DNA of 64,000 bases from Watersipora subatra (Eukaryota > Bryozoa > Gymnolaemata > Cheilostomatida > Watersiporidae). The notes beneath the pieces were generated by a model, which saw only the letters and a program-made list of their open reading frames with translations, was not told the origin of the DNA and did not search any database. The position numbers and the translations under genes were made by a program. Location of the stretch: the NCBI RefSeq assembly GCF_963576615.1, contig NC_088710.1:4320001-4384000 (forward strand), read 5' to 3'. Shown piece after piece: positions 8,866 to 61,779 of the stretch (position 1 is the first letter of the stretch; each line of letters opens with the position of its first letter).

Positions 8866-9059
8866 TGGATGTTGCTGGAGTTGAGAGGAACAGAGAGTTG
8901 GTTGAGTCTCCTGTTGTGTGTGAGTTGGTTGGCTATATCTGGCTATATCTTCTAACAGACTTGAAAGGATCAAGGCATCTCTTCTGGAAGATGCTGCGGA
9001 AATGAGATTGTTGAAATACATTGCAGAAGGTTGGCCACAATATAAGGATGTAGACCCAG

Positions 9060-17955: not shown

Positions 17956-18499
17956 TTCTTGTTTAGGCATCATTTCGGCGCAGAAAACATCTTTAATCTA
18001 GATGAGACTGGGATAACAACAGTGCAAAATCTGGGAAGGGTTGTGAGCAGTCGCGGAAAAAAGCAAGTTGGTGCCACGTCATCACAGGAGCGGAGAGAAC
18101 TGAGCACAATGTGCTGCACCATAAACGCTGCAGGCACCTACATCGCACCATTTTTTATTTTTCCAAGAAAGAATATGAAGATGTGCTTCATGAATGGAAC
18201 TCCGCCTGGATTAATAGGATGTGCTGTGCCGTCGGGGTACATGAACAGTGATTTGTTTGTCAACGAATATCTACCCTTCGTTAAGAACTCAACTCGATGC
18301 ACACCTGAGAAACCTGTCCTATTAATTTTGGACAATCATAGTTCACATGTTTCCTTGGAGGCTGTCGATTTGGCCAATTGATTCGGATGTGTTTCAAGAC
18401 CAGGAGTTCCTACCATCAGCCACAACTGACCGGCCGCTAGAGGGTGTGTTAGAAACTGAAATGCTTAGTCATGACGAGACGTCTGTCAGTGAAAACCCG

Positions 18500-31018: not shown

Positions 31019-32745
31019 TATTCTCTCCCCTTCTCCTCCCTCTCTCCCCCTCCTCCCTCTCTCCCCCTCTCCTCCCTCTCTCCCCCTCCTCCCTCTCTCC
31101 CCCTCCCCCCTCTCTCCCCTCCCCCTCTCTCCCTTCCCCCCCTCTCTCCCTTCCCCCTCTCTCCCTTCCCCCTCTCTCCCTTCCCCCCTCTCTCCCTTCC
31201 CCCATCTCTCCCTTCCCCCCTCTCTCCCTTCCCCCTCTCTCCCTTCCCCCTCTCCTCCCTTCCCCCCTCTCTCCCTTCCCCCTCTCTCCCTTCCCCCTCT
31301 CTCCCTTCCCCCCTCTCTCCCTTCCCCCTCTCTCCCTTCCCCCCTCTCTCCCTTCCCCCTCTCTCCCTTCCCCCCTCTCTCCCTTCCCCCCTCTCTCCCT
31401 TCCCCCCTCTCTCCCTTCCCCCTCTCTCCCTTCCCCCTCTCTCCCTTCCCCCCCTCTCTCCCCCTCTCCCCTCCCTCCTTCTCCCCCCCTCTCCCCTCCC
31501 TCCCTCTCCCCCCTCTCCCCTCCCTCCTTCTCCCCCCTCTCCCCTCCCTCCTTCTCCCCCCTCTCCCCTCCCTCCTTCTCCCCCCTCTCCCCTCCCTCCT
31601 TCTCCCCCCTCTCCTTCTCCCCCTCTCCTTCTCCCCCCTCTCCTTCTCCCCCTCTCCTTCTCCCCCCTCTCCTTCTCCCCCCTCTCCTTCTCCCCCCTCT
31701 CCTTCTCCCCCCTCTCCTTCTCCCCCCTCTCCTTCTCCCCCCTCTCCTTCTCCCCCCTCTCCTTCTCCCCCCTCTCCTTCTCCCCCCCTCTCCTTCTCCC
31801 CCCTCTCCTTCTCCCCCCTCTCCTTCTCCCCCCTCTCCTTCTCCCCCCCTCTCCTTCTCCCCCCTCTCCTTCTCCCCCCTCTCCTTCTCCCCCTCTCCTT
31901 CTCCCCCCTCTCCTTCTCCCCCCTCTCCTTCTCCCCCCTCTCCTTCTCCCCCCTCTCCTTCTCCCCCCTCTCCTTCTCCCCCCTCTCCTTCTCCCCCCTC
32001 TCCTTCTCCCCCTCTCCTTCTCCCCCCTCTCCTTCTCCCCCCCTCTCCTTCTCCCCCCCTCTCCTTCTCCCCCCCTCTCCTTCTCCCCCCTCTCCTTCTC
32101 CCCCCTCTCCTTCTCCCCCCTCTCCTTCTCCCCCCTCTCCTTCTCCCCCTCTCCTTCTCCCCTCCTCTTCTCCCCCCTCTCCTTCTCCCCCCCTCTCCTT
32201 CTCCCCCTCCTTCTCCTCCTCTCCTTCTCCCCCCTCTCCTTCTCCCCCCTCTCCTTCTCCTTCTCCTCCTTCTCCCCCCTCTCCTTCTCCCCCCTCTCCT
32301 TCTCCCCCCTCTCCTTCTCCCCCTCTCCTTCTCCCCCTCTCCTTCTCCCCCCCTCTCCTTCTCCCCCCTCTCCTTCTCCCCCCTCTCCTTCTCCCCCCTC
32401 TCCTTCTCCCCCCTCTCCTTCTCCCCCCTCTCCTTCTCCCCCCTCTCCTTCTCCCCCCTCTCCTTCTCCCCCCTCTCCTTCTCCCCCCTCTCCTTCTCCC
32501 CCCCTCCTTCTCCCCCCTCCTTCTCCCCCCTCTCCCCTCCTCCTTCTCCCCCTCTCCCCTCCCTCCTCCCCCCTCTCCCCGCCCTCCTTCTCCCCGCCCT
32601 CCTTCTCCCCCCTCTCCTTCTCCCCCCTCTCCTTCTCCCCCATCTTCCCCCTCCTCTCCCCCCTCCTCTCCTTCTTTCTCTGCCCATCCTCTCCTCCTTT
32701 CTCTGCCCATCCTCTCCTCCTTTCTCCCCTCTCTATAACTATCTC
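31019..32745. repeat. 1.7-kb polypyrimidine (C/T) satellite
   Basis: The plus strand is almost purely C and T for 1.7 kb. The first part is built on TCTCTCCCTTCCCCC (about 15-16 bp), then CCTCCTTCTCCCCCCTCTCC, then a long block of CTCTCCTTCTCCCCC (15-16 bp), grading into CTTTCTCTGCCCATCCTCTC. Without A or G on this strand no stop codon can occur, hence several spurious ORFs of more than 540 codons on both strands (Pro/Leu/Ser or Gly/Glu/Arg). Mirror symmetry makes triplex formation likely. It ends about 465 bp before the kinase 1 ATG. Confidence 0.98.
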
Positions 32746-33209: not shown

Positions 33210-35202
33210 ATGAATGTTTCACGAAAAGTCAACGAGTCAATGATAGATATGCTTAAAAACTTTAGTAAAACCTCAAGTCCTAGATACCTCTTAGACAAGT
33301 ACGAGTATTACTCTGTGAACCCGAATGGTGGTGAAGAAGACATGAAAAAGGCAAGTCTTCTTGGTAAAGGAGGATTTGGTGATGTCTATAGTGTCCGCGA
33401 AATCAAAGCCCGAGATCCATATGCAGTGAAAATTGTGAAAATGAATTATGAGGAAAACTACAGCAGCGGCCATGCAACAACAATATCTGAAATGGATCAA
33501 AACAGAATTTTCATGTTCGTAAAATACTGTCAAGAGGCGTGCTTGTTATCAGGCTTTTGCCATTCCAACATTGTGAAAGTTCGTGAGACGTGGATACAGA
33601 TGGGTGAAGAGGGATCTGGAAACGAGGGAGAAGCTGAGAGGTTTGAAAGTGAAGCTTTAGCTAACATCCAAATAATCTTGAACTTTCTACTTGAGTCTGG
33701 AGAGTCAGGTAGAGCAGCATCAACACTATCTGGAAATGTAGCTGAAGCTCTGGAGAGAACACAAGGTTTGTAAATTATTTCTAACATTGAACTCCTTTTC
33801 ATAGTAGGAAAATTTTTAATAGTAAAAGGAAAATGAAACTGTCATGTTCTTAAAGTGATGAAGAAGCGTCAGCTATGTGCAAAGGTTTATTAGAATATAC
33901 TGTACAACCTCTAATTGAATGCCACCTCTATTTGAATGCCACCTCCAATTGACCGCCACTAAAGAAAAAGGGTTAAAAAATAGAGCGCCATGACGTTCAA
34001 TTAAAGGTTTTACGGTATTCTAAATAGTAGTCATGATTGTTGCCAACTTTCAATATAATTTCTGTAACTGATGAGTTAGAAAAAGGGCAATTCTATTTGT
34101 TTAATAAGTGCTCTAAAATACAATTTTATTATCTCAATCGAATTTGACAATTTGTCGAGGTGATCAATGATATCTGCTTTAATATAGAATATTATTATCC
34201 CAATCAACTTTGATAATGGAAAAAAAATTTGCGTTTTTGCTTTATAACAGGGGCACCAGTTGTATGATGTATCTTGTGACCCATAAAATGCATATACTGT
34301 TTTACAGGACTAACTCTCTACATGGTGATGGATCTTTATGACACTGACTTGGCTCAATATGCATGCAGTTTAAAAAATGAAACAAAGGTTGAAATCATAA
34401 AAGATTTAATCAAAGCTATCGATTACCTTCATTCTAAACACTATTGCCATCTAGATTTGAAACCCTCCAACATTCTTTTGCAAACTTCAAACAATGAAGT
34501 GAAGGTAGCGGTCGCAGACTTTGGATTATGTACCCGGTTCCGCCCAGAAGCCATACCTCGAGAGCCAGGAGCAGGAACATGGCCATACAATACAGCTCAG
34601 ACACAAATGTTTCTGATAAGATTGACATCTGGGCCTTTGGACTGATAGTATACTATATTATAGAGTCTGGGCCAACAGATCATCAATTGGGTAATCTACT
34701 GAAGATAAAGAATGAGTCTGGAGAGGTTAGTGTGACTGATCATTTAGATCCAGAGTTTCAACAAATCATTTCTGAATGTTTAAGAGACCCGGATTTTTCA
34801 AGAATTTCTGCCAAAGAGCTTAGCCGTGTTTGCATTGAGAAATACATTCCTACAACAGTGTTGGCCTTCTCTGACCCACCCCAACCAATGAGTGATGAGG
34901 ACGATAGTATATTCTTCTCTGCCCCAGAGGGGAGTTTTACTGACCATGAACTAAGCTTAAACCTTGATAGTTTGTCTCTCAATAGTTATGGAAATAGTAG
35001 GCCACACACGCCGTCTGTGTCTGTAGCTGAGATTTTCAGTGCTGACAAGCATGATGATAACGTAGAAAGGCATGTGTTCAGGTTAGAAGGTCTCTTTGAT
35101 TTGGGGTCATCTGACAGCGATGGACTATCTATCTCGTTGTCAGAAACAGGGAGCAAGAGTGATAACAGCTACTTCTCTGCTACTTTTCAACCATTATCTT
35201 AG
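33210..35202 (+). CDS. Ser/Thr protein kinase 1 (eIF2-alpha-kinase-like layout), with frameshift
   Basis: Exons 33210-33765 and 34308-35202, joined in phase 1 (gt at 33766, ag at 34306-34307). Residues 1-185 give an N-lobe with LGKGGFGDV (51-59), YAVK with Lys74, a helix-C Glu (probably 109) and HSNIVKVRETWIQ (118-130), then an acidic insert of about 55 residues before the hinge LTLYMVMDLYD. Exon 2 has HLDLKPSN (233-240, Asp235 and Lys237 kept, HRD read as HLD) and DFG (256-258). An insert between beta-4 and beta-5 preceded by NIVK...W-I is typical of PEK/PKR/GCN2-type kinases, so an eIF2-alpha-kinase relative is the best guess; substrate unknown. At 34597-34599 the frame slips by one missing base, just before DTNVSDKIDIWAFGLIV; the paralogue reads through with AP at this point. 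The C-terminal 100 residues are acidic and Ser-rich. Without the slip the protein would be about 483 aa. AATAAA at 35596. Confidence 0.8.
33898..34017. mobile_element. small mariner-type MITE, copy 2
   Basis: A 120-bp element inside the kinase 1 intron, bounded by TACTGTACAACCTCTAATTG on the left and AATTAAAGGTTTTACGGTA on the right, with TA at each outer end. It contains GAATGCCACCTC twice. Same family as 1082-1185 and 41996-42113. Confidence 0.85.
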
Positions 35203-35595
35203 GAAGATGATGTAGAATGCTACTCTCTATAAACTACTGTATAATTACACAAGCTCTCTAGATATTGACTGTCAGGTCTGCTCAAAACTAGTAATGTAGT
35301 TTACTAATGGTTGTATAGTTACACTAGCCTGAGATATATTCACACAGCCTTAATGAACTACTCTTGGATCTTTTACTTTTAATTTACTTATATGTACTTG
35401 CATGTAGTACAAACCAGTTGTAGTATAAACTATGCGTTAAATATTATGCAGGATGTTTTATATATTCTATCATAGATGTCTTTACTTCTTTAGATTCATA
35501 CAGTTCTCAGTGTATTCATGGTCTTTTGGAAAAACAGTTTTTATTTTATACGTCTAGCCTGATAAAATTTATATTAAACACACGGAAGCCCTGTC

Positions 35596-35601
35596 AATAA
35601 A
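35596..35601 (+). terminator. candidate polyadenylation signal of kinase 1
   Basis: AATAAA about 395 bp after the kinase 1 stop codon, followed by a second one near 35620. Both are AT-context signals and unverified. Confidence 0.4.
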
Positions 35602-35699
35602 TTGGAAATTTGCATTATTGATAATAAACTCCTGTTAACTTACCGCATTCATGTGTGCAAAGAATAGGGCTCACTAAAAGCATAGATCAAGGACTCACT

Positions 35700-35885
35700 A
35701 CGAGCACAGGTCATGGAGTCTAAAAATAGAGTCTATTAACAATGGAGTCTACTAACAATGGAGTCTACTAAAAATGGAGTCTACTAACAATATAGTCTAC
35801 TAACAATGGAGTCTACTAACAATAGAATCTACTAACAATGGAGTCTACTAACAATAGAATCTACTAACAATGGAGCCAATCAACA
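35700..35885. repeat. 16-bp tandem array (GGAGTCTACTAACAAT)
   Basis: About ten copies of GGAGTCTACTAACAAT or AGAATCTACTAACAAT, degenerate at both edges. Confidence 0.92.
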
Positions 35886-36651
35886 ACATAGCTCACTAGA
35901 AGTAGGGTCCAATAACAACAGAGTTTAAATTTAAAACAATTTTGCTTCATAAAACCACCAGACCACCTTACAGAGCTTGATGAATATAAAGCTTTTCATT
36001 GTGTTGGCAAATAAGTGAACTTTGACATTATAGACTTAAAAACACACTTGCATGAAAAATTAAATGCAAGGAACCAAGCTAGCCTTGTGAAGTTGTTGTG
36101 ATGTAGAGAGAACATTGGAAAGCATTTGGCGTCCTCATGATAATCACAGTTAAATGACAGGCATTAGCAGGTACTCACATTGGCCACTGTAAGATGTACA
36201 TAAACAATTCACCAATGAGTAAAACTACATTAATATATGAGTATAATTCTCGTACTTTTTATTAATTAGAATGCACCATTGATAAGGAGAAATTTTGTGT
36301 CTCGTGAAAGCTGTACAAACAGAAATCAGCTCCTTGAAAATTTACAGCATAGGCAGAATTTATGAAAGAAATTTGTTCTTACCAGGCAAATACAAGCAGT
36401 ATGTAAAATATTATCAACTCAACATAATGGGCTAATCAATGATCAGAAAAGGACAATTCCAAAACAAAAATTGAATATATTTTGCACTGGTATCTATCGG
36501 CAGGTTGGATAGGAAGTAGAGCATTATCCATGCTCATACATGTATGAAATGATACTGAATGCATGGTCTCGACACCCAACCTACCTCCTGGCAGCAACAT
36601 TGACAACAATACAGATGTAGTACTTTATAGGCATCAACTGTTTTTGACTTG

Positions 36652-37712
36652 ACATGTTTCAGATGAAATACGAAGAATACAGCATTTTTGTTGAGTAATA
36701 TATATCTATATATATATAGCTGAATTTCAATCGGCTGCTCTCACAACGAACCTACGCCCTGATGATGAGGAAATTGACTGGCATACGAAACCTCTTCATG
36801 GTGCTTACCACCAACAAATATCTAAGGTTGGCGATCTTCACCAGACATATATGTGGCTGAACAAAGGAAACCTAACGGCCAATACAGAGTCGCTAATCAT
36901 GGCAGCCCAGGAGCAAGTGCTCCCAACAAGGCAACTCCAAACGAAAATCTATCACACTAGAGACGATCCTAGATGCAGACTGTGCAAAGATGCACCTGAG
37001 ACCATCCAACACATCATCAGTGGATGCAGACAGCTAGCAGGTAACGCATACACTGAGCGGCATAATCATGTCGCAGGTGTTGTGTATAGAAGTCTATGTG
37101 ATGAGTATGGCCTTAGTAAACCACAACACTGGTGGGAAGCTCCTGGTAAGGTCAATGAAAATGACCGCGCTAAGATCCTCTGGGACTTCTACATCCAAAC
37201 TGACAAGCATGTCCTAGCAAACCAACCAGATATAGTGGTGGTAGACAAGGAGAACAAGAGGGCTACTATAATAGATATAGCAGTACCCAATGACTACAAT
37301 ATAGCCAGCAAAGAAAAAGAAAAGGTAGAAAAATATCTCCCTCTTGGAGAAGAGATTGAAAAATGCTGGAATGTAAGAACAACCGTAATCCCAGTAGTCA
37401 TTGGGGCACTGGGCGCAATAACACCGGCGCATAAAATGTGGCTTGCCCAAATACCAACAACAATCAACTCAGGTGAGTTGCAGAAAAGTGCGCTATTGGG
37501 AACAGCTAAGATCTTGAGACGAGTGCTCAAACTCCCAGGTCTCTGGTAGGAGACCCGAATTAGAGCAGAATTTACCACCCATACGGGGTATCCGGGGTGA
37601 GGAAACAAAATTATATATATATATATATATGTATATACATATATATACATATATATATACAATATATATGTATATAATTTACATACATATATTACAATAT
37701 TATGTGTATATG

Positions 37713-37751
<39 letters not shown>

Positions 37752-37798
37752 TACTCAACAAAAATGCTGTATTCTTCGTATTTCATCTGAAACATATG
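36652..37798. mobile_element. foldback element interrupted by a LINE fragment
   Basis: ATGTTTCAGATGAAATACGA on the left (from about 36654) is repeated inverted on the right (TCGTATTTCATCTGAAACAT, ending about 37796). The match is essentially perfect for about 50 bp, through GCATTTTTGTTGAGTAATAT. The centre is TA-rich, and the R4/Dong-like LINE end sits in that TA tract. A second inverted pair overlaps the right end (about 37677-37727 and 37798-37851, TTTACATACATATATTACAA with its inverse). Confidence 0.75.
36719..37549 (+). pseudogene. R2/R4-type LINE C-terminus with restriction-like endonuclease
   Basis: About 276 open codons; the reading begins upstream of the Met at 36851 (EIDWHTKPLHGAYHQQ). 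It shows the post-RT Cys/His motif CRLCKDAPETIQHIISGC, then WDFYIQTD, then the PD-(D/E)xK-like endonuclease core QPDIVVVDKENK....IIDIAVP with EKEKVEKY, and the closing LGTAKILRRVLKLPGLW. This is the C-terminal part of a non-LTR element that uses a restriction-like endonuclease (R2, R4/Dong or NeSL groups), as opposed to the APE-type LINE half at 23-24 kb. RT and N-terminus are absent, so it is a 5'-truncated copy. Its insertion in a TA run matches the R4/Dong preference for simple repeats. No internal stop is present. Confidence 0.85.
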
Positions 37799-37860
37799 TA
37801 TATATATATATACATATACACATAATATTGTAATATATGTATGTAAAATAAATATATATA
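37612..37860. repeat. (TA)n-rich microsatellite with inverted repeats
   Basis: TA and TATAC runs with embedded inverted arms centred near 37764. These give short spurious Tyr/Ile-rich ORFs. Confidence 0.9.
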
Positions 37861-37992
37861 GCCTATAACAACCTAACTTAATGTAAATGACAAATGATAA
37901 AAGTTCCAGCATGTTAACTGCGAACTCTGCGGGTTTGGGTTTGTCATTTGGCTGAAGTGCCTGTAACAATTGTATTTTGTAAGCATACAGAC

Positions 37993-38312
37993 TTAAGTTT
38001 CAGGTAGGACATTGTTTACTGTCGAACGTGGCATTTTCAACTGTCTGGCAGCAGTTCGGATGAATTTCCTAGGAGAACGATGAAAGGCTTGCCTTACACG
38101 ATTGATATTGTGCTCCGAAGTTCTTGGTCGCCCATTCCTCTGTTTATCCAACACCATCTCGTCTCCATAAAATTTTTGTGCCATCTACGAGTTAAAGAAC
38201 ACGATGGTGGATCTCTCCCATACTTAGTTTGGTAGTTTCGCCGAGACTGCACATCTGACTATGTATCAATGAACCAGGATACACATTGCCCCTTCTGTTG
38301 AGGAGTATCCAT
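37993..38312 (-). pseudogene. mariner-like transposase N-terminal remnant
   Basis: Reading down from an ATG at 38312: MDTPQQKGQCVSWFIDT, an in-frame TAG, then SDVQSRRNYQTKYGRDPPS and RRWHKNFMET. After a frameshift near 38160 come NGRPRTSEHNINRVRQAF, RSPRKFIRTAARQLKMPRST and VNNVL. These are the paired helix-turn-helix regions, with the GRP linker motif, of a mariner/IS630-type transposase widespread in invertebrates. The catalytic DDE/D half is absent. A stop plus a frameshift make it inactive. Confidence 0.85.
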
Positions 38313-38853
38313 CCTAACCTATTCAGTTTGCTTTCTGTTACTAGAGTGACTGTAACTGTCTTAAACTGAGACTGCAAGGGAAAGGGAACTTTTCCCTTTC
38401 CCCTCAGTAAAAAACATTACGAATCACTGATAAAAATAAAACAAATCTGGTTAACATATCTCAAACAACTGGCTTAGTAATACATTATTTAAGTTGTATC
38501 AGGACTTTACGGACACCCTGCATTTAGTTTCACAGAGAACCTTAGAAACAAAATACATAACACAAGCTATGCAAAATAAAAAGTACACAGTACAGATTGC
38601 TGGAACATAGTCTATATAAAGTAAGGCTATATATAACACGTACTATACAGATTGTCAGTTATAAAGAGTACTACTTAGGAAAAGCGCAGGCTATAGCAAA
38701 AGTTAAAGACTCCAGGCTATAAAAACACAAATCGTAAAGAACCTAGACTGAGTAGAAGGTTGAGGGTAGAAAGAGCGTATTTTACAGATTTTATCGTACA
38801 CATACTGCGAGATGTACAAAATATTTGTAGAGAGTATAGTCTACACAAAGTAC

Positions 38854-41812
38854 AGACTATACATACAGACTTACATCCAGACTATACATACAGACTATAC
38901 ATACAGACTATACATACAAACTATACATACAGACTGTACATACAGACTATACATACAGACTATACATACAGACTATACATACAGACTACACATACAGACT
39001 ACACATACAGACTACACATACAAACTATATATACAGACTATACATACAGACTATACATACAGACTATACATACAGACTATACATACAGACTATACATACA
39101 GACTATACATACAGACTACACATACAGACTACACATACAGACTACACATACAGACTATACATACAAACTATATATACAGACTATACATACAGACAATACA
39201 TACAGACTATACATACAGACTATACATACAGACTATACATACAGACTACACATACAGACTATACATACAGACTACACATACAGACTACACATACAGACTA
39301 CACATACAGATTATACATACAGACTATACATACAGACTATACATACAAACTATATATACCGACTATACATACAGACTATACATACAGACTATACATACAG
39401 ACTATACATACAGACTACACATACAGACTATACATACAGACTATGCATACAGACTATACATACAGACTATACATACAGACTATACATACAGACTATACAT
39501 ACAGACTATACATACAGACTATACATACAGACTATACATACAGACTATACATACAGACTACACATACAGACTATACATACAGACTACACATACAGATTAT
39601 ACATACAGACTATACATACAGACTATACATACAGACTATACATACAGACTATACATACAGACTATACATACAAACTATATATACAGACTACACATACAGA
39701 CTACACATACAGACTATACATACAGACTATACATACAGACTATACATACAGACTATACATACAGACTATACATACAGACTATACATACAGACTATACATA
39801 CAGACTATACATACAGACTATATATACAGACTATACATACAGACTACACATACAGACTATACATACAGACTATACATACAAACTATACATACAGACTACA
39901 CATACAGACTACACATACAGACTATACATACAGACTATACATACAGACTATACATACAGACTATACATACAGACTATACATACAAACTATATATACAGAC
40001 TATACATACAGACTATACATACAGACTATACATACAGACTATACATACAAACTATATATACAGACTATACATACAGACTATACATACAGACTACACATAC
40101 AGACTACACATACAGACTATACACACAGACTATACATACAGACTATACGTACAGACTATACTTACAGACTATACATACAGACTATACATACAGACTATAC
40201 ATACAGACTATACATACAGACTATACATACAAACTATATATACAGACTATACATACAGATTATACATACAGACTATACATACAGACTATACATACAGACT
40301 ATACATACAGACTATACATACAGACTATACATGCAGACTATACTTAAAGACTACACATACAGACTATACATACAGACTATGCATACAGACTATACATACA
40401 GACTATACATACAGACTATACATACAGACTATACATACAGACTACACATACAGACTATACATACAGACTATACATACAGACTATACATACGGACTATACA
40501 TACGGACTATACATACAGACTACACATACAGACTATACATACAGACTATACATACGGACTATACATACAGACTATACATACAGACTACACATACAGACTA
40601 TACATACAGACTATACATACAGACTATACATACAGACTATACATACAGACTATACATACAGACTATGCATACAGACTATACATACAGACTATACATACAA
40701 ACTATATATACAGACTATACATACAGACTATACATACAAACTATACATACAGACTACACATACAGACTACACATACAGACTATACACACAGACTATACAT
40801 ACAGACTACACATACAGACTACACATACAGACTATACATACAGACTATACATACAGACTATACATACAGACTATACATACAGACTATACATACAGACTAT
40901 ACATACAAACTATATATACAGACTATACATACAGACTATACATACAAACTATATATACAGACTATACATACAGACTATGCATACAGACTATACATACAGA
41001 CTATACATACAGACTATACATACAGATTATACATACAGACTATACATACAGACTATACATACAGACTATACATACAGACTATACATACAGACTATACATA
41101 CAGACTATACATACAGACTACACATACAGACTATACATACAGACTATATATACCGACTATACATACAGACTATACATACAGACTATACATACAGACTATG
41201 CATACAGACTATACATACAGACTATACATACAGACTATACATACAGATTATACATACAGACTATACATACAGACTATACATACAGACTATACATACAGAC
41301 TATACATACAGATTATACATACAGACTATACATACAGACTATACATACAGACTATACATACAGACTATACATACAGACTATACATACAGACTATACATAC
41401 AGACTACACATACAGACTATACATACAGACTACACATACAGACTATACATACAGACTATACATACAGACTATACATACAGACTATACATCCAGACTATAC
41501 ATACAGACTATACATACAGACTATACATACAAACTATATATACAGACTATATATACAGACTATACATACAGACTATACATACAGACTATACATACAGACT
41601 ATACATACAGACTATACATACAAACTATATATACAGACTATACATACAGACTATACATACAAACTATATATACAGACTATACATACAGACTATACATACA
41701 GACTATACATACAGACTATACATAAAGACTATACATACAAACTATACATACAAACTATACATACAAACTATACATACAGACTATACATACAAACTATACA
41801 TACAAACTATAT
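38854..41812. repeat. 13-bp satellite (GACTATACATACA), about 227 units
   Basis: An almost uninterrupted array of 13-bp units, with common variants GACTACACATACA, AACTATACATACA and AACTATATATACA. All three plus-strand frames lack stops because the unit contains no TAA, TAG or TGA in any register and 13 is not a multiple of three. This gives ORFs of up to 1027 codons that repeat a 13-residue pattern (LYIQTIHTDYTYR). The minus strand has TAG in every unit. These ORFs are not genes. Variant units recur in groups, so segmental duplications within the array are likely. Confidence 0.98.
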
Positions 41813-41829
41813 ATATACCTGTAAGCTCC

Positions 41830-43130
41830 ACACAAACGTCTAATTGCACAAGCTCTCTTTTTTCCGTGTGGTCCGGTCAACACTGGTAATGTAGTAAAAT
41901 GATATAGTTGCACTAGCCTGAGAGATATTAATGCAACCATAATCACTATACATGCTACTATACACTATACATGCTGAACCACTGATCATGCCACTTATCG
42001 CAAAATCTTTATTTGAAAGCCATGGTGCGCTATTTTTCACCCTATCTTCTATAGTTGCTTTCTTAGAGGTGGCATTAAAATAAAGGTGGCATTTAAATAG
42101 AGATTTTACAGTAACTGTAAACAGGCGGTACAAATCACTGGATATGCAGAGAATTAATACTGATGATCCGGCCCTCCCTTCATTATATGCTTTTTTAAAT
42201 CTCTCTTACATATCAGTTTCAGATATGCTTTAAAATGTTTACAGATGGCTGCAATATGCTCTGAGTAATCGTTGAGACACATTGGTAAAACATAATATGG
42301 GAGTTATCTTCTCGATGCCAATTTCAGCATTAAGCTGTAGACTAGAATCTAGATCATTAGCCTATGGGGTCGAGAAAGGCCTCCGGATAGATCGATTGAA
42401 AATTTTTTTAATATTCACTGAAAATGTCTGTCATACGACAAGCAGTCAACTACAAAATTAAGCATAGATGAAAAAGCTCAGGCCACACTTTTTATTCTGT
42501 GTGGTATAGGCATATATGTAGGCATAGCATGCCCTCTTTTAACAAGGAAGGCTTTTATGGCGGGACACACGCATACCGTGGTGCCCCAAAACTATTATAA
42601 CAGCAATGATGATATGGTAGAATCTGAAAGCTAGACCCTTACCCAAAGCGCACAAGAACCTGAAAGCACACATTTTTGGTCTGCCAAAGCTGCAAAACGA
42701 TTCGCAACCAAAAGGCTATACTTTTGGTTGCGAGTTGTGTCAAGGATTTTACGAGAAGACAACTCTCCGCTGAGGATTGTCTTTTCATAAAATATTTGAC
42801 TCAAGATTGTTGTCTTTTTCTACGAAGAGCTCACTCAAAACTTTCCTTAACTTTTACCCCCAAAATACATGTTATAGTTTGTAATGATTTGTAAGAAGCT
42901 TTATGATCCTAACAATAATAATTCTGTGTCATTTGATTTTAAGTAGTTAATATAAGTTAGCCTGAGAACTATCTGCATCTCAGGATCTACCACGGTACGT
43001 TGCTAGGAGTTTGCGACATGACAAGAAATCCAGCATATTGAAAAAATTCTTTCATTACTTTAGAAGTATATTTTGAGAATAAGAATCCTGTCTTTTATGT
43101 TTTCGTTTTTTGCTAACTTGTGATGCTGAA
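41830..43130. other. intergenic, no gene recognised
   Basis: Apart from the MITE at 41996-42113, I see no coding or repeated structure. The 72-codon ORF at 42676-42894 is not recognised. Confidence 0.45.
41996..42113. mobile_element. small mariner-type MITE, copy 3 (inverted)
   Basis: The right end AAATAGAGATTTTACAGTA and AGGTGGCATTTAAAT mirror the left end of copy 2, so it is inserted in the opposite orientation. The left end (TCGCAAAATCTTTATTTGAA) is diverged. Confidence 0.75.
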
Positions 43131-43137
43131 TTATTCC

Positions 43138-43912
43138 TTTCCCATCCTATAAGGGTGCTATATACTCCTTTCCCATCCTATAAGGGTGCTATATACTCCT
43201 TTCCCATCCTATAAGGGTACTATATACTCCTTTCCCATCCTATAAGGGTGCTATATACTCCTTTCCCATCCTATAAAGGTGCTATATACTCCTTTCCCAT
43301 CATATAATGGTGCTATATACTCCTTTCCCATCATATAAGGGTACTATATACTCCTTTACCATCCTATAAGGGTACTGTATACTCCTTTTCCATCATATAA
43401 AGGTACTATATACTCCTTTCCTATCCTATAAGGGTGCTATATACTCCTTTCCCATCCTATACGGGTGCTATATACTCCTTTCCCATCCTATAAGGGTGCT
43501 ATATACTCCTTTCCCATCCTATAAGGGTGCTATATACTCCTTTCCCATCATATAAGGGTGCTATATACTCCTTTCCCATCCTATAAGGGTACTATATACT
43601 CCTTTCCCATCCTATAAGGGTGTTATATACTCCTTTCCCATCCTATAAGGGTACTATATACTCCTTGCCCATCCTATAAGGGTGATATATACTCCTTTCC
43701 CATCCTATAAGGGTGCTATATACTCCTTTCCCATCCTATAAGGGTACTATATACTCCTTTCCCATCTTATAAGGGTACTATATACTTCTTTCCCATCCTT
43801 TAAGGGTGATATATACTCCTTTCCCATCCTATAAGGGTACTATATACTCCTTTCCCATCATATAAGGGTGCTATATACTCCTTTCCCATCCTATAAGAGT
43901 GCTATAATTAGT
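43138..43912. repeat. 31-bp satellite (about 25 units)
   Basis: Regular units of CTCCTTTCCCATCCTATAAG followed by GGTGCTATATA, differing mainly at GGTGC/GGTAC and CCTATA/CATATA. There are no unique spacers between units, so it is not a CRISPR-like array. Confidence 0.97.
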
Positions 43913-44601
43913 AGAAATTGAAATCTTTTTGTGGTTTGAAAGCATAGGGGAATCCCCGCAATAAGCAAGCACTTGACAAACAATATCACTAGCCTTCAAA
44001 AGATCCTGTGTCACATAACAATAAATCATACAAATAATCGTTACAGTTGTGTTGCTAAAAGGTATGTAGGGTTACATCGATAAGAAGTGTGTGAGGCAGC
44101 CATATTGTCAATCAGAAAGTTGCTAATAGGAGCGGTAAGTGTTGCTGGTAGCCTGTAAATCAACAAGTTACTGCATAGTTCGTGGGTTGTCTTCTCTATC
44201 CGAGTAGACAAGTATAAACCAATCATATTTCTTATTGTTACAGAATTCCTCATGATTTATTCTATTTAAAAGTACTAATCTTGTGAGGTCTGTTCTGAGT
44301 TAGTTTGTAGTAGCTAGTATATACGATTGCTTTATGTTGCACCTTATGATAGCTATGTACAAATTATCATAGACCCTGCTCTTTCACTAAATCCCTTCAC
44401 TAATATTCAGAAAGTAGTAATAGAGAATAGGCTAATAGACATTTCTAGCTAGTGTGACCAAGCTAGTGTGATTTCAACAAGTCAAGTCCTTACATCTCCA
44501 TGTTATACTAGTAGCTGTCCCTATTACAGAAACTATCCTCTCATCAGAAGATGGATGCTCATAAAATGCAGAAAGACTGATGAATCATTGCCAATGCTAC
44601 A

Positions 44602-47600
44602 ATGAACTTTTCAAAAAAAGTCAAAAATTCTATGATTGACTTGCTTAAAAACTTTGAAGAAACCTCAAGTTCAGGGTATTTTTTGCAAAAATATCGATAC
44701 ATTCCGGTAAAAAGAAATGGCCTAGTTGACAGCATAGATGCAAGCTTTCTTGGTGAAGGAACGTTTGGCAAAGTCTACAAAGTACAACATAGGGAGACAT
44801 GCAGGGAGTACGCAATGAAGATAGTGAAGATGTCCTATGAACAAAGCTACCGTCCTGGAGGTTCCACTACTATCTCTAAAATGGACAAAAATATCATTCT
44901 CCGTTTCCTACGGTACTGCCAGGAGGCATGTTTGCTATCTAGATTCACTAACGAAAATATTGTGAAAGTTCATGACAAGTGGATACAACAGCGAGATGTT
45001 CATGACAAGTGGATACAACAGCGGGATGAAAACTCCGAAAGCGAAGCTGTGAAGAACATACAGCTTATCTCCCATTTTTTGTCAAACTTGGATGAGACTG
45101 CCGAGACCCCTATACCAAAAGAAATAGCTGAAGCTATGGTTAAAACAGATGGTACCATTGGTTTTCTTTGCTAAAATAGTTGAGATAATATTTTAGAATA
45201 ATATTAATATGTGTGTAAATTATGTTAATGGATGGCAATAATTATGTGAAATGTGTCAAAGTACCTCCTTTAATTTCTACATTGCATTCAATTACAGCTT
45301 TAGCTCTGACTCATAATAACTATTGAATTTGCTAATAATGGACATTTTATATTTTTTGACTTGTAACAAAATTCACATTACAGTTATTTGGTATTAAAAG
45401 ATTCACCATGTCTTATTCTGTTGTGTTGTAGGTTCCAAATATGTGGAAATGTGATTACAAGCTCTTAAAAGCTCAAAAACGAACAGAAAATCGCAGCCAC
45501 ACGAAACCGCCGTAGTTTGGATTCCCTTTCCAAAACGGCGCAAATGTGATGTAGTTGTGAGAGATGGTTTCTGTTTACACTTTCTTGCAACCTTATTAGT
45601 CGAAATATTTTCACAAACATACTTCACGCATTGAATAAAACCATGTCTATTGTTCTTACGCGTCTGTTTTATCGTCATCGTAATGCTGTCACTTTTAGCA
45701 GTGATATCTTATAACTTACCGTAAAAAATCGTTAAACTTTTTAACCTTGCCTCGAATGAGTACATATCATTGTCTGATAATCATGACGAGTCTGTTGGTC
45801 ATCTGTGATAATCGAAAAGTGCTGCAAAAATTATTTGCGAAGTATTGGGTCACATGATCAGATTACGACTTGACGATTGAATAATGCCGAAACAAAACTG
45901 TAAAGTAGCGAGCATCTATATTTAATACGGGGTCTTCGGTAAAACCCGAAGTGTTTGTCATAAACTAGTACTACGATAAGTTTTATATTGAGCTTTTTAT
46001 TGGCCTTTCAATTCACGTGAGAATATAGGTGACAAGACGATAACCAAATTTCGTGGTTACGTCATCAAAATAAAGAGATTCCAATCTACGGCGACTTTTC
46101 GTTTTTGAGCTTTTAAGAGCTTGTAATCACAGTTCCACATATTTGGCACCTACAACACAACAGAGTAAAACATGGTGAATCTTTTGATACCAAATAACTG
46201 TAATGTGAATTTTGTTGCAAGTCAACCTCTAATGAATCGTATATATGAGAGAAAAGGGGACAGCTGACACCTTAGTACAAACCGTTCTTTAAGCTATTTA
46301 TAGATTTAGTTCCACACTTGTGTAGGGCACTCTTTATTAGCTTTACTTGAGTAATTATTGTTTGGGTGACCAATTAGTAGTGTACTATGTATATTATATA
46401 TATACTATATATAGTATATATAGTTTATATATAGTATATATATTTTATGCGTATAGTATATAATATATACTATATACATAAACTATATATAGTATATATA
46501 TACTATATATACTATATATATACTATATATAAACTATATATATAGTATATAGGCCTAATACTATATATAGTATATATAGTTTATGTATATATATACAGTT
46601 TATGTATATATATAGTTTATGTATATATATATATATATATCTACATATATATTTCTCAAAGTATGTATGCGTGTCCCTCCAGCTATAGCTATTATCAGAA
46701 TAGCGTACTTGGACAATGCTGACACCACGTAATGGCGTATCATCATTAAAAGTAGTGCTTATTAACTAGCTTACTGGAATTTTCCATTGGCATTGTGCCA
46801 GGCCACTTGACAATGGCCTGCCACTTGCTAGAGAGTTGTCTGCCCGTATGTGGCAGGCCAACTCTCATCTCTTCTCATTGCTTATAAGCTGATTTTTCAT
46901 ACCCGGGCAATGCCGGGAGGCACAGCTAGTGTATATATACAAACTAAACATATTAACTTTATAAGCTAAAGTTTGCTTGTACTGAGCAGATTCTAGTATA
47001 GTAGTTTAATAGACTACATGTGATTACAATACTATTAACAGGGACAGCTCAATATAACAGAGTGTCATGTGTTTCACATATCACATTTAATCTTAAACCA
47101 TAATTGTCACATACAACTTTTATTGTATCTTCTAGGTAAATCAGACACGCTGATTTTGTACTCGAAATAAAGATTGGTCCACTAACTTTCAGGGTAATGA
47201 AGGCTTTTTTACAGCGTTCTAATATCCGTCTTGAAAACAACACAATCGGCACAACAAGCTCCACCCATAAATATGTAACATAACCTAGCTTTTTAGGAAT
47301 GGAAGTTAGGGATGTTTAGTCCGATTTCGAATAATAGAGATGGCTGTCTTAAAACCCATTATTATCTAAATTCAGCCTTAAAAATAATCTGTTTTTTCTG
47401 AAAGGTAGATAAGCTATTTAACATTGCATATTTAAAAAAGAGCGATTTTATCACAAGCTAGCGTTGTTATTGCGCTTTTTTAAGCTCTTTTTTTTCTCGG
47501 TGTTTACCCTATTAAACATCTTGTAACAAGCTATGAGCAATTTTAAATAGTTTATCTACTTTTCATAAAAGACTGAGATTATTTTACAGGCTGAATTTAG

Positions 47601-48594
47601 ATAATAATGGGTTTTACGACACTCATCTCTATTATTTTAAATCGGAGTGAACATCCCTAACTTAAGTTCCTAAAAAGCTAGGCTACGTCACATATTTATG
47701 GGCGGAGCTTATTATGCCAATTGTGTTGTTTTTGAGACGGATATGGAAACGCTTTAAAAAAGCCTTAAGGACTTTGAAGGTTAGTGGACCAATCTTTTTT
47801 TTAGTACAAAATCGGAATCAACGTGTCTGATGTACCTAAAAAAGACGATAAAAGTTGTACGTTACCGTTATGGTTTAAAGTATGTTACAGACCTGACGCT
47901 TTACATGGCTATGGATCTATACGACACCAATCTAGACAAATGGCTTCAGGAACCAAAGAACAGGTTAGATGAAAGTTCTAAAGCTGAAATTATAAAAAGA
48001 CTGATCAACGCGTTGTCGTACCTTCATTCAAAATCCTGGTGCCATATGGATCTGAATCCAGTTAATATTCTTTTGAGGATGACTTTTGCTGGAGTAGAAT
48101 TGGCCATCGCTGACTTTGGATTAACCACCTTGTACAGTTCACAACCGATAGCTTTGGATGGGGATAGAGAAGGAAAGGCACCATACAACTTAGCTCCAGA
48201 TGAACACATCTCTGATAAGATCGACATCTGGTCTTTGGGACTCATTGTCTTCTATATCATCACATCCAGAGATAACTTTAAAGGATTGGAGGACACGGAG
48301 AATATAATGAACCTATTTCATACAGATACTTTGCTAAAGTTTCAACCGATAGTCCAACAGTGTTTGCAGCACAATCACGAAGAAAGAGTTAGCGCGGCAG
48401 ATCTTGAATCTGAATACTTTGATGAGAAGAGGGACACACAGAATATTCCATTAGAAAACCACAGTTCATCTTCTTCAGCTGAAGATAGTAGTACTTACTT
48501 GTCATGTAAACAGAGAATCTCGACAGATACTCTTTCATCAAATTTTTATCAGAGTTTTACTGATAAAATATCTTTGGAACATGACAGTCGCTGA
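44602..48594 (+). CDS. Ser/Thr protein kinase 2 (paralogue of kinase 1; altered catalytic loop)
   Basis: Exons 44602-45151 and 47891-48594, phase-1 junction (gt at 45152, ag at 47889-47890), 417 aa, no internal stop. Aligns throughout with kinase 1: MIDLLKNF near the start, FLGEGTFGKV (49-58), YAMK with Lys73, CQEACLLSRF with helix-C Glu108, NENIVKVHDKWIQ, a short acidic insert, LTLYMAMDLYD at the hinge, DFG (258-260) and SDKIDIWSLGLIV. Two oddities: the catalytic loop reads HMDLNPVN (235-242), so Asp237 is kept but the Lys two residues later is Asn239; and VHDKWIQQRD is duplicated in tandem (123-142; DNA 44968-45027). APE reads APD. The Ser-rich tail (SSSSAEDSS) is shorter than in kinase 1. 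An eIF2-alpha-kinase-like relation is inferred from the insert position. It may be a weak kinase, a pseudokinase or a regulatory partner; the intact frame argues for use. Confidence 0.85.
45356..46225 (+). mobile_element. long-TIR element, copy A (in kinase 2 intron)
   Basis: The ends are inverted repeats of about 130 bp: TTGACTTGTAACAAAATTCA followed by CATTACAGTTATTTGGTAT on the left, and the inverse TAACTGTAATGTGAATTTTG followed by TTGCAAGTCAA on the right, with further matched blocks (CACCATG, ACAACA, TTGTAATCACA, GAGCTTTTAAGAGC). Copies B (50030-50814) and C (52941-53863) are in the opposite orientation. No transposase is seen. A 92-codon minus-strand ORF recurs in part in all three copies but varies. 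Confidence 0.85.
46385..46640. repeat. (TATATAG/CTATATA)n tract
   Basis: AT-rich simple repeat made of ACTATATATAGT-type palindromes, able to form many hairpins. It directly precedes the Helitron copy. Confidence 0.93.
46640..46929 (+). mobile_element. non-autonomous Helitron, copy 2
   Basis: A 290-bp element: 5' A|TCTACATATATATTTCTC with AAAGTATGTATG, then GTCCCTCCAGCTATAGCTAT; 3' hairpin CCCGGGCAATGCCGGG, then AGGCACAG and CTAG|T. Insertion between A and T and the hairpin plus CTAG terminus are the Helitron hallmarks. The 5' and 3' ends match copy 1 at 12122-12973. Confidence 0.88.
47092..47877. repeat. 790-bp imperfect palindrome at the end of the kinase 2 intron
   Basis: Two arms of about 300-390 bp are inverted copies: left TAAACCATAATTG, ACAACTTTTAT, TAGGTAAATCAGACACG, TTGGTCCACTAACTTTCA, AACCTAGCTTTTTAGGAA, ACCCATTATTATCTAAATTC, mirrored on the right (GAATTTAGATAATAATGGGT, TTCCTAAAAAGCTAGG, GTTAGTGGACCAA, TACCGTTATGGTTTA). 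The symmetry centre is near 47485. The right arm ends 13 bp before exon 2. It is probably a foldback/MITE insertion. Confidence 0.88.
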
Positions 48595-54736: not shown

Positions 54737-57700
54737 TCAGTTAGACTTAACATGGTTGAAGTTGTTATCAACACGGGAAGAGTGCTTGCCATTTGACACT
54801 GCTCTGACCTCACACTTGGATTTGTATGCATTGACATAGAAATTAGTAAAAAGGGCTATTAAAATAACCATGTAGGCTGTGAGCATAACGATAGACCACA
54901 TAGGAAAATCACAACCGGACAGATACGTGTTGACGGTGTGCACGAGGACTATGACAAACTGGCAGAGTTGCAACTGGGTAATATACCTCTTCCACCAGAG
55001 ATACTTTCTGACACTAGGAAACAGGTTGAGCAAGTAGTAGGTGTACATGAATACGTGTACAAAAGAATTGAGACTAGAGGCAAGCCAGCCTTGTCCACCG
55101 GGAATGAGACGTATGCAGAACCACCAGATGTTGAACATGGTTGCGTGGTGGAAGACGTGGAGGAATGTAATCTGGGAGTTTTTCTTGCGCAGAACCATGA
55201 GAACCGTGTCCATGAACTCTATCGGTTTAGAAATGTAGTACCACCAGAGCGCCTATGAAGAAAATAGTAACAGAGTGTATGAGCTCTCATATAAGTAACA
55301 CAGGGTTCATAAAATACACTGATCATCGTAGGTACTACTGTGAGCCGAACACAACTGCTGAAATTTATGAAAGCTTTACCTGCACCCATAATGTTATAGC
55401 AATGATCACGTTTTTGTGACATTGCTGGAAACTATAAAAGCTACCAAATGGAATCAGTACCGGGTTTTTTAGCATTATAAGTGCGACAAACGTCAGGTGT
55501 AGATTTATTGATGACACGCAATATCATGGTCACTCATACTGACGCTTGGAAAGTGTTTTAAAAGCTGTTCCGTTGCGCATAGAGAGCGAAACAAGACAGC
55601 AAACCTGTGATAAGGTCTAGTTATTTCAAAGAGCACATGCCCAAAAGAACAGAAAGAATAATAAACAAGGTCACTGTCATGCCTATATATAGCCGGGAAT
55701 TGCCTCATTCATGACTTGCACTAATTACTGTACAATAAATAGAGAAAATTTGCTGCTAGAACAATTTACAGCATTAAAAAAGGATAGCAAGTGTTCGCTG
55801 CAGCTTCCATGGCGACAGGCGAGTTGATCTCAAGTTAAAAATTTCGAACAAGCTTATTTTACAGACGTGTAAAAATTTAAATGGAGATTATACTGGACTG
55901 TGAGCAGTAACAACTTAGCAATATATCATTAATTACAATCAAACAAAATAGTCCAAGACAATTGTCATTTTAATAATCGTCAGTCTAATAATCGTCAGTC
56001 TAATAAACGTCATTTTAACGATCGTCAGTCAAATAATCGTCAATGTAAGAACTGCCAATCTATTAATTGTCAGTCTAATAGATCGTCATTTTAATAAACA
56101 TTTCAGAAACGCAAGGAATCATCACTTTAATAAACTGTAATTCTTGTATTTGATGAAAGTATCAAAGTTTGTTGTTGCAAGCTATGCAAAATTTATATTT
56201 AGTTTTTTTGAAGAGATATACCTAGTCAGGGATAATGTAATTAAATGGATCAATTGACAAGATGTAGTAAGCTGCTTGACAAGGTGCAGCAGATTGCTGG
56301 AAATGGTGTAGCCAGGCCCGTATTCCCTGGAGCGGCTGGCCGGCTGAACCGCCTCGACATTTTAGTGATTTTCGGCGGCTAAGTACTAAGAAGCGCAGTC
56401 TAAGCTCGTTCACTTGGAATTTCCAACTACTAATTTACTAGCAACTAGCGTTCTGTAGTGTCTCCGTGGTGATCTCGTCAAATGAGTGATCTTGTGAGAC
56501 TTTGTTAAGACTTGGAAACTGAACTTTATTGCTTATAGTGGGGGTGTGAAGAAGACCCCCAAACTTGCATTTTCCTTAACATTTTCATTTTGTCATTTTT
56601 CATAACATAACCGAATCAGAACATCGTTGAGGAGCACTATGGGACAGGCTCGTCTAAATAATCTTCTAATATTACACATATAATGTATAAAGATGTTGAA
56701 ATAGATAGAGAATCAGTTGTAAAAGATTTCTGCCATGAACACATTGACAGAACAAGAGCTATTGCAATAAAAAAAGTAATAGCTTTTGTTCTGTCAATGT
56801 CAATTTTATTATCGTTCGTTGAATAAAGAAAAGGCTTTGCTTTCCATGAACCATAAACAATATATTTATGTAGATTTTAATGCTTACAATTGATTGCATT
56901 TATGCATACTTTGAGGGTTGTTAATGCTTAAAAGGTCCAGAGCTTTGGGACGCTGTCCCCAACCCCGTGGGGGCTTATACCGCCCCCAAACCCTCAGGTG
57001 TTCGTAAACAGTCGCCTAACATTTGCCGTCCCAACTTGCAACCCGGGAATACAGGCCTGGGTGTAGCAGGTCACTAGATAACGTGTAGCTAATCGCTAGG
57101 CGATGTGTAGCAAGGCCATAAGGAAGAACTATCGGATCGCCGAACAAGAGCTATCTCTATCTATTTCTAAATGACATGCTCTGTGAAGACGTGGACGATA
57201 ATGGTATCAAAAGTTATCTGGTCACTAGATAAGAGATGCAAAGGTTGACCTTTACAGCTGGTCATGAGACAAGCTGTAAAGGTAAAAATACTAGTGACTT
57301 TTTTTAGCGATATCGATGGCGTACAGGTGAGCAAATACGAATCTCCCACACCCCAGCTCGCACTCAGCATACGACGGTTAGATGTAAAACTCACTACGCT
57401 GATAGCAAACCGATGGATACAAAAAAGTTTATCAAAATAGTGAGAAAGCGACCTGCTTTGTACGATCTAACCAATTCAGACGGTATGAATCCTTCAATCA
57501 AATTTAACAACTGAACCGTGTTTGTTGAAACGCTAAAATTGGGCAATCGTAGAGCGTTGTACTTTGTTCGATGGCAATACCAAAAATCAAATTAAACAAA
57601 ACTGATCAAAATTCATTGTATTCATTACACCAATTCGTAATCTTGAACAGCTTAATATTTGTAATGACTAAATGCTTCTTTACATTTTTTCTACTGTCCC

Positions 57701-61765: not shown

Positions 61766-61779
61766 TATTTTATCTGTCA

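What the first reader, a model, noticed from the sequence alone, without database searches (positions are those of the whole stretch)
33210..48594. Pair of divergent two-exon kinases with an eIF2-alpha-kinase-like insert
The two genes share exon structure, the phase-1 intron position, N-terminal MID-LLKNF/MIDMLKNF, a rare CQEACLLS helix C, LTLYM-MDLYDT at the hinge and SDKIDIW. Both have an acidic insert between NIVKV...W-I and the hinge, where PKR, PERK and GCN2 have theirs, and no transmembrane or dsRNA-binding domain. They may represent a lineage-specific expansion of small PEK-like kinases of unknown stimulus.
Basis: partly seen in the sequence, partly recalled or inferred. Interest (0 to 1): 0.75.

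Follow-up and report, generated by a model that had tools for sequence, protein, structure and literature searches.

The report
Bryozoan family of compact stress-type kinases
Two neighbouring kinase genes in a colonial sea animal (a bryozoan) belong to a small family that looks like a stripped-down offshoot of the kinases that shut down protein synthesis under stress; here one copy is broken and the other seems to have lost part of its catalytic machinery.

Summary
The window is chromosome 3 of the bryozoan Watersipora subatra. It holds two same-strand, two-exon kinase genes, 47% identical over 364 residues, with the same phase-1 intron and an acidic insert between strands beta4 and beta5. Genome searches with two divergent members return the same six loci: this pair, one gene on chromosome 8, and a chromosome-3 cluster of three, one of them a pseudogene. 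Four relatives lie on unnamed ENA contigs. So a family expansion is shown. The eIF2-alpha-kinase (PEK) link is partly supported. Two cluster members carry HRDLKPxNIF and AWIE, motifs of PEK or PEK/WEE kinases, and the family profile ranks five PEK kinases first of 29 references. But CDPKs outrank them in the PDB, the PEK helix-G signature is missing, and trees leave the family unplaced. Orthology to HRI, NCBI's name for gene 1, is not supported; a separate HRI-like gene exists. Substrate and stimulus are unknown. A new variant of a known kind.

The parts
33210..33765 (+). Gene 1 exon 1: N-terminal helix motif, kinase N-lobe, beta4-beta5 insert; ends with a phase-1 donor
   Evidence: 50% identical to gene 2 exon 1
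33600..33765 (+). Gene 1 beta4-beta5 insert (acidic, net -8), lying at the end of exon 1
33766..34307 (+). Gene 1 intron, GT..AG, phase 1
34308..35202 (+). Gene 1 exon 2: hinge, kinase C-lobe and acidic, Ser-rich tail; split into two reading frames
   Evidence: 201 stop-free codons after the break
34585..34600 (+). Frame break (one base relative to gene 2) in the activation loop of gene 1
   Evidence: assembly quality QV 63.2 (PMC12902671)
44602..45151 (+). Gene 2 exon 1
44968..45028 (+). 30-bp tandem duplication spanning the beta4 WIQ motif and the start of the gene 2 insert
44989..45151 (+). Gene 2 beta4-beta5 insert (acidic, net -7)
45152..47890 (+). Gene 2 intron, phase 1, enlarged by two inverted-repeat elements and a TA-rich tract
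47891..48594 (+). Gene 2 exon 2: hinge, C-lobe with HMDLNPVN and GKAPYN, short Ser-rich tail

Best explanation
The window holds two members of a bryozoan family of compact protein kinases without a recognised sensor domain, most likely a divergent offshoot of the eIF2-alpha kinase (PEK) stock. SHOWN: six loci in the Watersipora genome share one exon design (exon 1 = N-terminal helix motif, N-lobe, insert; exon 2 = hinge, C-lobe), and the five used in a tree (L018, a pseudogene, left out) form one clade. The insert is conserved. Two cluster members (L016, L017) have the main catalytic motifs and evolve under purifying selection. Gene 1 is frame-broken in this haplotype; gene 2 lacks the catalytic-loop Lys and the P+1 Thr. 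INFERRED: L016/L017-type members are active Ser/Thr kinases. The N-lobe additions (a long beta3-alphaC loop and a beta4-beta5 insert with a predicted amphipathic helix) take over regulation or docking. Gene 2 binds partners or nucleotide rather than phosphorylating efficiently. If PEK descent is right, pairing through the N-lobe faces is the likeliest way the members interact (back-to-back dimers are the PEK mode, recalled; a back-to-back HRI model is mentioned in the passages seen of PMC13181343). eIF2-alpha as substrate of the active members: about 0.25. The stimulus is unknown.
For: Six loci from two exon-1 queries (10 of 10 and 9 of 9 candidates scored). Same exon design with predicted phase-1 junctions in L015-L018. 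Family clade support 100/98, five of six loci. Clear gap in 5.8 billion proteins: gene 1 itself and four ENA members at E <= 1e-20, next hit 1.9e-3. Insert: in 14 of 15 pairs at most 46 of 1000 shuffles reach the score, in one 129. Averaged over six members the insert segment fits a helix (p 0.005) rather than a strand (p 0.78), five of six peaking at 100-105 degrees. KPxNIF occurs only in PEK and WEE references (7 of 29), AWxE only in PEK/WEE (6 of 29), both present in L016/L017. Family profile: PERK 107, PKR 102, GCN2 94, HRI 92, yeast GCN2 91 bits, next PDIK1L 90. An acidic insert between subdomains IV and V is described as specific for eIF2-alpha kinases (PMC2291453, passages). dN/dS of L016 versus L017: 0.34 in exon 1 (Fisher p 9e-6), 0.31 in the first 190 codons of exon 2 (p 0.012), 0.45 over all 203 aligned codons of exon 2.
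Against: Trees do not put the family inside PEK: the two window genes alone sit with TTK (87/85; 95/91 with six rows removed, where PEK grouping is rejected at p 0.026 and PEK+WEE is at p 0.057). With all five members the TTK link is 71/80 and PEK is not rejected, p 0.19. Against the whole PDB, CDPKs (102 bits) outrank PKR (96), GCN2 (92) and PERK (90), and ULK3 (90.5) lies between; single sequences hit many families. The helix-G TxxE signature, in 5 of 5 PEK and 0 of 24 others, is absent from both window genes and, read by eye, altered in L016/L017. The first glycine of the glycine loop is missing in L016/L017 (KRGRFG). The beta3-Lys to alphaC-Glu distance is 35-51 in the three members measured, against 12-18 in PKR, PERK, HRI, GCN2 and WEE1. 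Gene 1's own insert does not prefer a helix (moments 1.24 and 1.23). HRI's insert is reported as disordered (PMC13181343, passages), unlike the helix inferred here.
Confidence: 0.5

Rival explanations
1. The family is a separate kinase family of the 'Other' group (perhaps nearer TTK/MPS1 or unplaceable); its insert and the W in strand beta4 arose independently of PEK. It would work as an ordinary Ser/Thr kinase with its own docking insert and have nothing to do with eIF2-alpha.
For: The window genes join TTK in two trees (87/85; 95/91). Tyr at helix-F position +10 as in TTK, IRE1 and CK1D. No TxxE. CDPKs score above the PEK chains in the PDB list. PDIK1L, which as recalled also has a beta4-beta5 insert, scores within one bit of the lowest PEK. 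IRE1 as sister is not rejected either (p 0.276).
Against: HRDLKPxNIF and AWIE in L016/L017. PEK references take ranks 1-5 of 29. TTK support is 71/80 once all five members are used. TTK lacks AWxE and NIF.
Confidence: 0.35
2. The window pair are decaying copies: gene 1 is a fresh pseudogene and gene 2 a pseudokinase relic, and only the chromosome-3 cluster still works. (Not exclusive of the best explanation.)
For: Frame break in gene 1 with QV 63.2 assembly. Loss of catalytic Lys and P+1 Thr in gene 2. L018 carries a stop and a frame break. NCBI's model of gene 1 is truncated.
Against: Gene 1 keeps 201 stop-free codons after the break (0 of 2000 shuffles do) and its main catalytic residues except the HRD Arg. 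Gene 2 has no stop in 417 codons, and codon positions 1, 2, 3 differ between the genes as expected for coding sequence. L015 shows the same Lys loss (HLDLTPSN) and GK in another subfamily, which suggests a retained, not random, change. P0177, from another source, is 57% identical to gene 1.
Confidence: 0.3
3. Gene 1 is the bryozoan HRI (EIF2AK1), as NCBI's automatic name says.
For: Name given by NCBI to P0121; HRI-like hinge length, by eye; HRI as sister not rejected in the first data set (p 0.118).
Against: HRI as sister is rejected with the five-member family (AU p 0.038) and in the reduced set (p 0.026). A separate multi-exon HRI-like gene lies at C3:53.016 Mb, 52% identical to human HRI over 61 residues.
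Confidence: 0.03

Closest known systems
eIF2-alpha kinases (PEK family: PKR, PERK, GCN2, HRI)
   Same: Acidic insert between beta4 and beta5; in cluster paralogues also AWIE and HRDLKPRNIF; best profile scores among 29 references
   Different: No recognised sensor domain (Pfam, window genes); long beta3-alphaC loop; no TxxE in helix G; window genes are non-RD (HLD, HMD) and gene 2 lacks the catalytic Lys; two-exon genes
HRI / EIF2AK1 (NCBI's name for gene 1)
   Same: Short hinge, L-Y-x-x-M-x-L...L..W pattern by eye; KPRNIF in L016/L017
   Different: HRI sister position rejected in two of three tests (not); a separate HRI-like gene exists; HRI's insert runs from about 240 to 370 and is disordered (PMC13181343, passages)
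TTK/MPS1
   Same: Nearest single branch to the window genes in the trees; non-RD catalytic loop (HSD)
   Different: No AWxE, no KPxNIF and, as recalled, no beta4-beta5 insert; support is 71/80 when paralogues are added
Fish PKR/PKZ tandem duplicates
   Same: Head-to-tail kinase paralogues close together (about 8 kb in zebrafish, 9.4 kb between the genes here) with variable inserts (PMC2291453, passages)
   Different: PKR and PKZ have nucleic-acid-binding sensor domains and kinase domains encoded by seven exons

Membership tests
PEK (eIF2-alpha kinases) | Acidic insert linking subdomains IV and V (beta4-beta5) | tested here: met
   Position by Pfam alignment (best stretches begin at profile 68 and 72 where exon 2 begins); net charge -3 to -9 in six members; literature definition PMC2291453 (passages)
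PEK (eIF2-alpha kinases) | Catalytic loop HRDLKPxNIF, window genes | tested here: not met
   HLDLKPSNIL and HMDLNPVNIL; 5 of 5 PEK have it
PEK (eIF2-alpha kinases) | Catalytic loop HRDLKPxNIF, cluster paralogues L016/L017 | tested here: met
   HRDLKPRNIF in both; the form is absent from 24 of 24 non-PEK references (CDPKs were not among them)
PEK (eIF2-alpha kinases) | eIF2-alpha contact residues Thr451, Thr487, Glu490 (PKR numbering; PMC2291453) | tested here: not met
   By offset from the helix-F Asp, gene 1 has T, T, Q and gene 2 K, N, G (451 position read)
PEK (eIF2-alpha kinases) | Falls within or beside the PEK clade | tested here: inconclusive
   AU p 0.112, 0.026, 0.19
PEK (eIF2-alpha kinases) | Phosphorylates eIF2-alpha Ser51 | not testable with these tools
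   needs a kinase assay
HRI (EIF2AK1) | Orthology to HRI | tested here: not met
   AU p 0.118, 0.026, 0.038; separate HRI-like locus
WEE1/PKMYT1 | Groups with WEE kinases | tested here: inconclusive
   AU p 0.134, 0.027, 0.197
NEK | Groups with NEK2 | tested here: inconclusive
   AU p 0.068, two window genes only
TTK/MPS1 | Groups with TTK | tested here: inconclusive
   87/85, 95/91*, then 71/80 with five members
Catalytically active protein kinase | VAIK Lys, alphaC Glu, HxD Asp, catalytic Lys, Asn, DFG Asp | tested here: inconclusive
   Gene 1 has these but is frame-broken; gene 2 lacks the catalytic Lys (N) and P+1 Thr (K); L016/L017 have these, but lack the first glycine of the glycine loop

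The most novel reading that the evidence does not exclude
A bryozoan-specific innate-immune or self-defence kinase system: fast-evolving, sensor-less PEK derivatives in tandem clusters, in which catalytically dead members (gene 2, L015) act as decoys or allosteric partners of the active ones (L016/L017), kept in step by gene conversion of the catalytic exon while the N-lobe/insert exon diverges.
Probability: 0.08. Interest if true: 0.75.

Novelty: new variant of a known kind. Interest (0 to 1): 0.42.

Why it matters
If PEK descent is confirmed, bryozoans have a set of stand-alone, sensor-less relatives of the kinases that switch off translation, with at least two catalytic-loop-degenerate members. 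That would test whether an eIF2-alpha kinase can be rebuilt around N-lobe inserts alone, and it gives a marker family for a poorly studied phylum. If PEK descent fails, it is still an unnamed animal kinase family. I saw no description in print: bryozoan with eIF2AK1 gave 0 papers, with integrated stress response 4, none on point by listing; broader searches listed only part of their matches (15 of 1,059; 12 of 609; 8 of 517) and none of those titles was on point. The library is open-licence PMC only.

Tried and rejected

Limits: the letters of all 29 reference kinases were recalled from memory; GCN2, HRI and PERK agreed with PDB chains residue by residue, WEE1 by bit score only, PKR in the stretches printed; the rest are unverified. 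CDPKs (P0002, P0122) were in the trees but not in the 29-reference profile ranking or motif counts. One search left out six rows: the five long ones and MOS. L018 was left out of the trees. Gene 1 entered with X at the break. Protein searches showed only part of their rows (120 of 347; 120 of 455). The insert-helix test used a segment that I chose after seeing the alignment.
Full report
What is there. The window is G000:C3:4320001-4384000. One window protein is NCBI's Watersipora subatra model P0121, a cheilostome bryozoan; its contig of 75,932,528 bp matches chromosome 3, 75.93 Mb, of the genome note (PMC12902671, outline and section 5 read); the copy held here is 75,923,518 bp. Gene 1 has exons 33210-33765 and 34308-35202; gene 2 has exons 44602-45151 and 47891-48594; both predicted introns are GT..AG and phase 1. 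The proteins are 47% identical over 364 residues. Pfam finds only kinase-type models in both at E <= 1e-3.

Gene 1 is split by a one-base frame break near 34585-34600, in the activation loop. The frame after the break has 201 codons without a stop, against 0 of 2000 composition shuffles, so the break is recent or an error; the assembly's QV of 63.2 makes an error unlikely but does not exclude it. Gene 2 reads HMDLNPVN and GKAPYN, losing the catalytic-loop Lys and the P+1 Thr, while gene 1 reads HLDLKPSN and GT. A 30-bp tandem duplication spans gene 2's beta4 motif and the start of its insert. Gene 2's long intron contains two inverted-repeat elements and a TA-rich tract.

How many there are. 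Querying the genome with gene 2 exon 1 gave six places; querying with the exon 1 of a distant member, L016, gave the same six: gene 1, gene 2, L015 (C8:52.83 Mb, minus strand), L016 (C3:16.282 Mb), L017 (C3:16.312 Mb) and L018 (C3:16.317 Mb). The exon-1/exon-2 design with a predicted phase-1 junction is seen in each. L018 has a stop in the glycine loop and a frame break, so it is a pseudogene. No further copy lies in 124.5 kb of flanking sequence. Six is a lower bound for strongly diverged or exon-2-only copies, because the exon-2 query did not complete.

Relatives elsewhere. A search of 5.8 billion proteins with gene 2 found its own exon 2 and otherwise only kinases at 77 bits or less, in the 120 of 347 rows shown. 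A two-gene profile found P0121 (gene 1) and P0123 (120 of 455 rows shown). The exon-1 profile found P0121, P0123, P0177, P0178 and P0179 at E <= 1e-20, the next hit being 1.9e-3 (28 proteins among 1267 candidates). The last four come from short ENA contigs without a name. P0177 groups with gene 1 and gene 2 (93/98) and P0178/P0179 weakly with L015 (64/53), which suggests that the subfamilies are older than the split from that source, whatever it is. No viral or prokaryotic contig encoded a relative.

The insert. It does not behave as random linker. In 15 pairwise comparisons among six members, 14 scores were reached by at most 46 of 1000 shuffles; the exception, gene 2 against P0179, by 129. 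The hydrophobic pattern averaged over six members fits a helix (permutation p 0.005) rather than a strand (p 0.78); five of six members peak at 100-105 degrees, gene 1 does not. Net charge is -3 to -9. A second family trait is the long beta3-alphaC loop: 35, 51 and 35 residues from the beta3 Lys to the alphaC Glu in gene 1, P0178 and P0123, against 12-18 in PKR, PERK, HRI, GCN2 and WEE1. No usable structure of the insert was obtained.

Placement. For PEK: the cluster members L016/L017 read HENIVRVHDAWIE and HRDLKPRNIF. Among 29 references KPxNIF occurs in the five PEK and two WEE kinases only and AWxE in six PEK/WEE kinases only, PKR lacking it; with HRD, only PEK qualifies. The five-member profile ranks PERK, PKR, GCN2, HRI and yeast GCN2 first to fifth of 29, though PDIK1L follows within one bit of the fifth. 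Against: in the whole PDB, CDPKs (102 bits) precede PKR (96), GCN2 (92), ULK3 (90.5) and PERK (90) (60 of 2789 rows shown); one EGFR-labelled chain leads that list. The TxxE signature of helix G is in 5 of 5 PEK and 0 of 24 others, and in neither window gene. In trees the two window genes alone join TTK (87/85; 95/91 with six rows left out), PEK grouping having AU p 0.112 or 0.026. With L015, L016 and L017 added, the family is one clade (100/98), TTK support is 71/80, PEK is not rejected (p 0.19), nor is WEE (p 0.197), and HRI as sister is rejected (p 0.038). So PEK descent is favoured by motifs, allowed by the fullest tree, and not proven.

Name and canonical relatives. [quoted passage not shown] A separate HRI-like multi-exon gene lies at C3:53.016 Mb (52% over 61 residues to human HRI), and five PERK-like matches of 47-77% identity at C1:46.30 Mb. 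The family is therefore additional to what look like canonical eIF2-alpha kinases.

Selection. L016 and L017 differ with dN/dS 0.34 in exon 1 (Fisher p 9e-6), 0.31 in the first 190 codons of exon 2 (p 0.012) and 0.45 over all 203 aligned codons of exon 2, whose ends differ: purifying selection, so at least these two look like working genes. Their synonymous divergence is 0.41 in exon 1 and 0.06 in the first 190 codons of exon 2 (p 7e-7), most simply explained by gene conversion of exon 2.

How it most likely works. Shown: anatomy, six loci, conserved insert, catalytic motifs, constraint on L016/L017, damage in gene 1 and L018. Inferred: L016/L017 are active kinases, the N-lobe additions regulate or dock, gene 2 and L015 (HLDLTPSN, GKPPYN) are catalytically weak partners, and gene 1 is a null copy in this haplotype. 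An eIF2-alpha substrate is a guess at about 0.25. Literature used: PMC2291453 (passages; insert specific for eIF2-alpha kinases, contact residues), PMC13181343 (passages; HRI insert disordered), PMC5851622 (abstract and section 13; outgroups NEK2, TOPK, TTK, WEE1).

Verdict. Observation confirmed with corrections. The expansion is confirmed. The PEK reading is plausible but not settled. It is a new variant of a known kind, of moderate interest.

Noticed in passing
L016 (C3:16.282 Mb) and L017 (C3:16.312 Mb): Exon 2 is far less diverged at silent sites (dS 0.06 over 190 codons) than exon 1 (dS 0.41): probable gene conversion of the catalytic exon between tandem copies.
   Followed up: partly
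L018 (C3:16.317 Mb): Third cluster copy is a pseudogene with a stop in the glycine loop and a frame break in the activation loop, close to where gene 1 is broken too.
   Followed up: partly
L041 (C3:53.016 Mb) and C1:46.30 Mb: HRI-like and PERK-like multi-exon matches, the likely canonical eIF2-alpha kinases of this bryozoan.
   Followed up: partly
window 38851-41815: 228 copies of a 13-bp tandem repeat (TACAGACTATACA), nearly 3 kb, open in several frames; not a gene.
   Followed up: no
window 31025-32675: Pyrimidine-rich 15-bp tandem array with extreme GC skew just upstream of gene 1.
   Followed up: no
window 54740-61885, minus strand: Exons of an ELO-family fatty-acid elongase gene (Pfam ELO, E 1e-49 and 3e-11).
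   Followed up: no
window 23158-24552 (-), 8559-9002 (+), 36695-37546 (+), 17956-18378 (+): Remains of retrotransposons (RVT_1, RNase H; a zf-RVT match below its cut-off) and of a DDE transposase (match below its cut-off).
   Followed up: no
window 45356-46225 and 47093-47878: Two inverted-repeat elements inside the gene 2 intron (arms 131 nt at 95% and 226 nt at 86% complementarity).
   Followed up: no
P0177 (ENA, 3058-bp contig): This relative of gene 1 starts inside the N-lobe, which suggests an extra exon boundary or a truncated copy in that organism.
   Followed up: no
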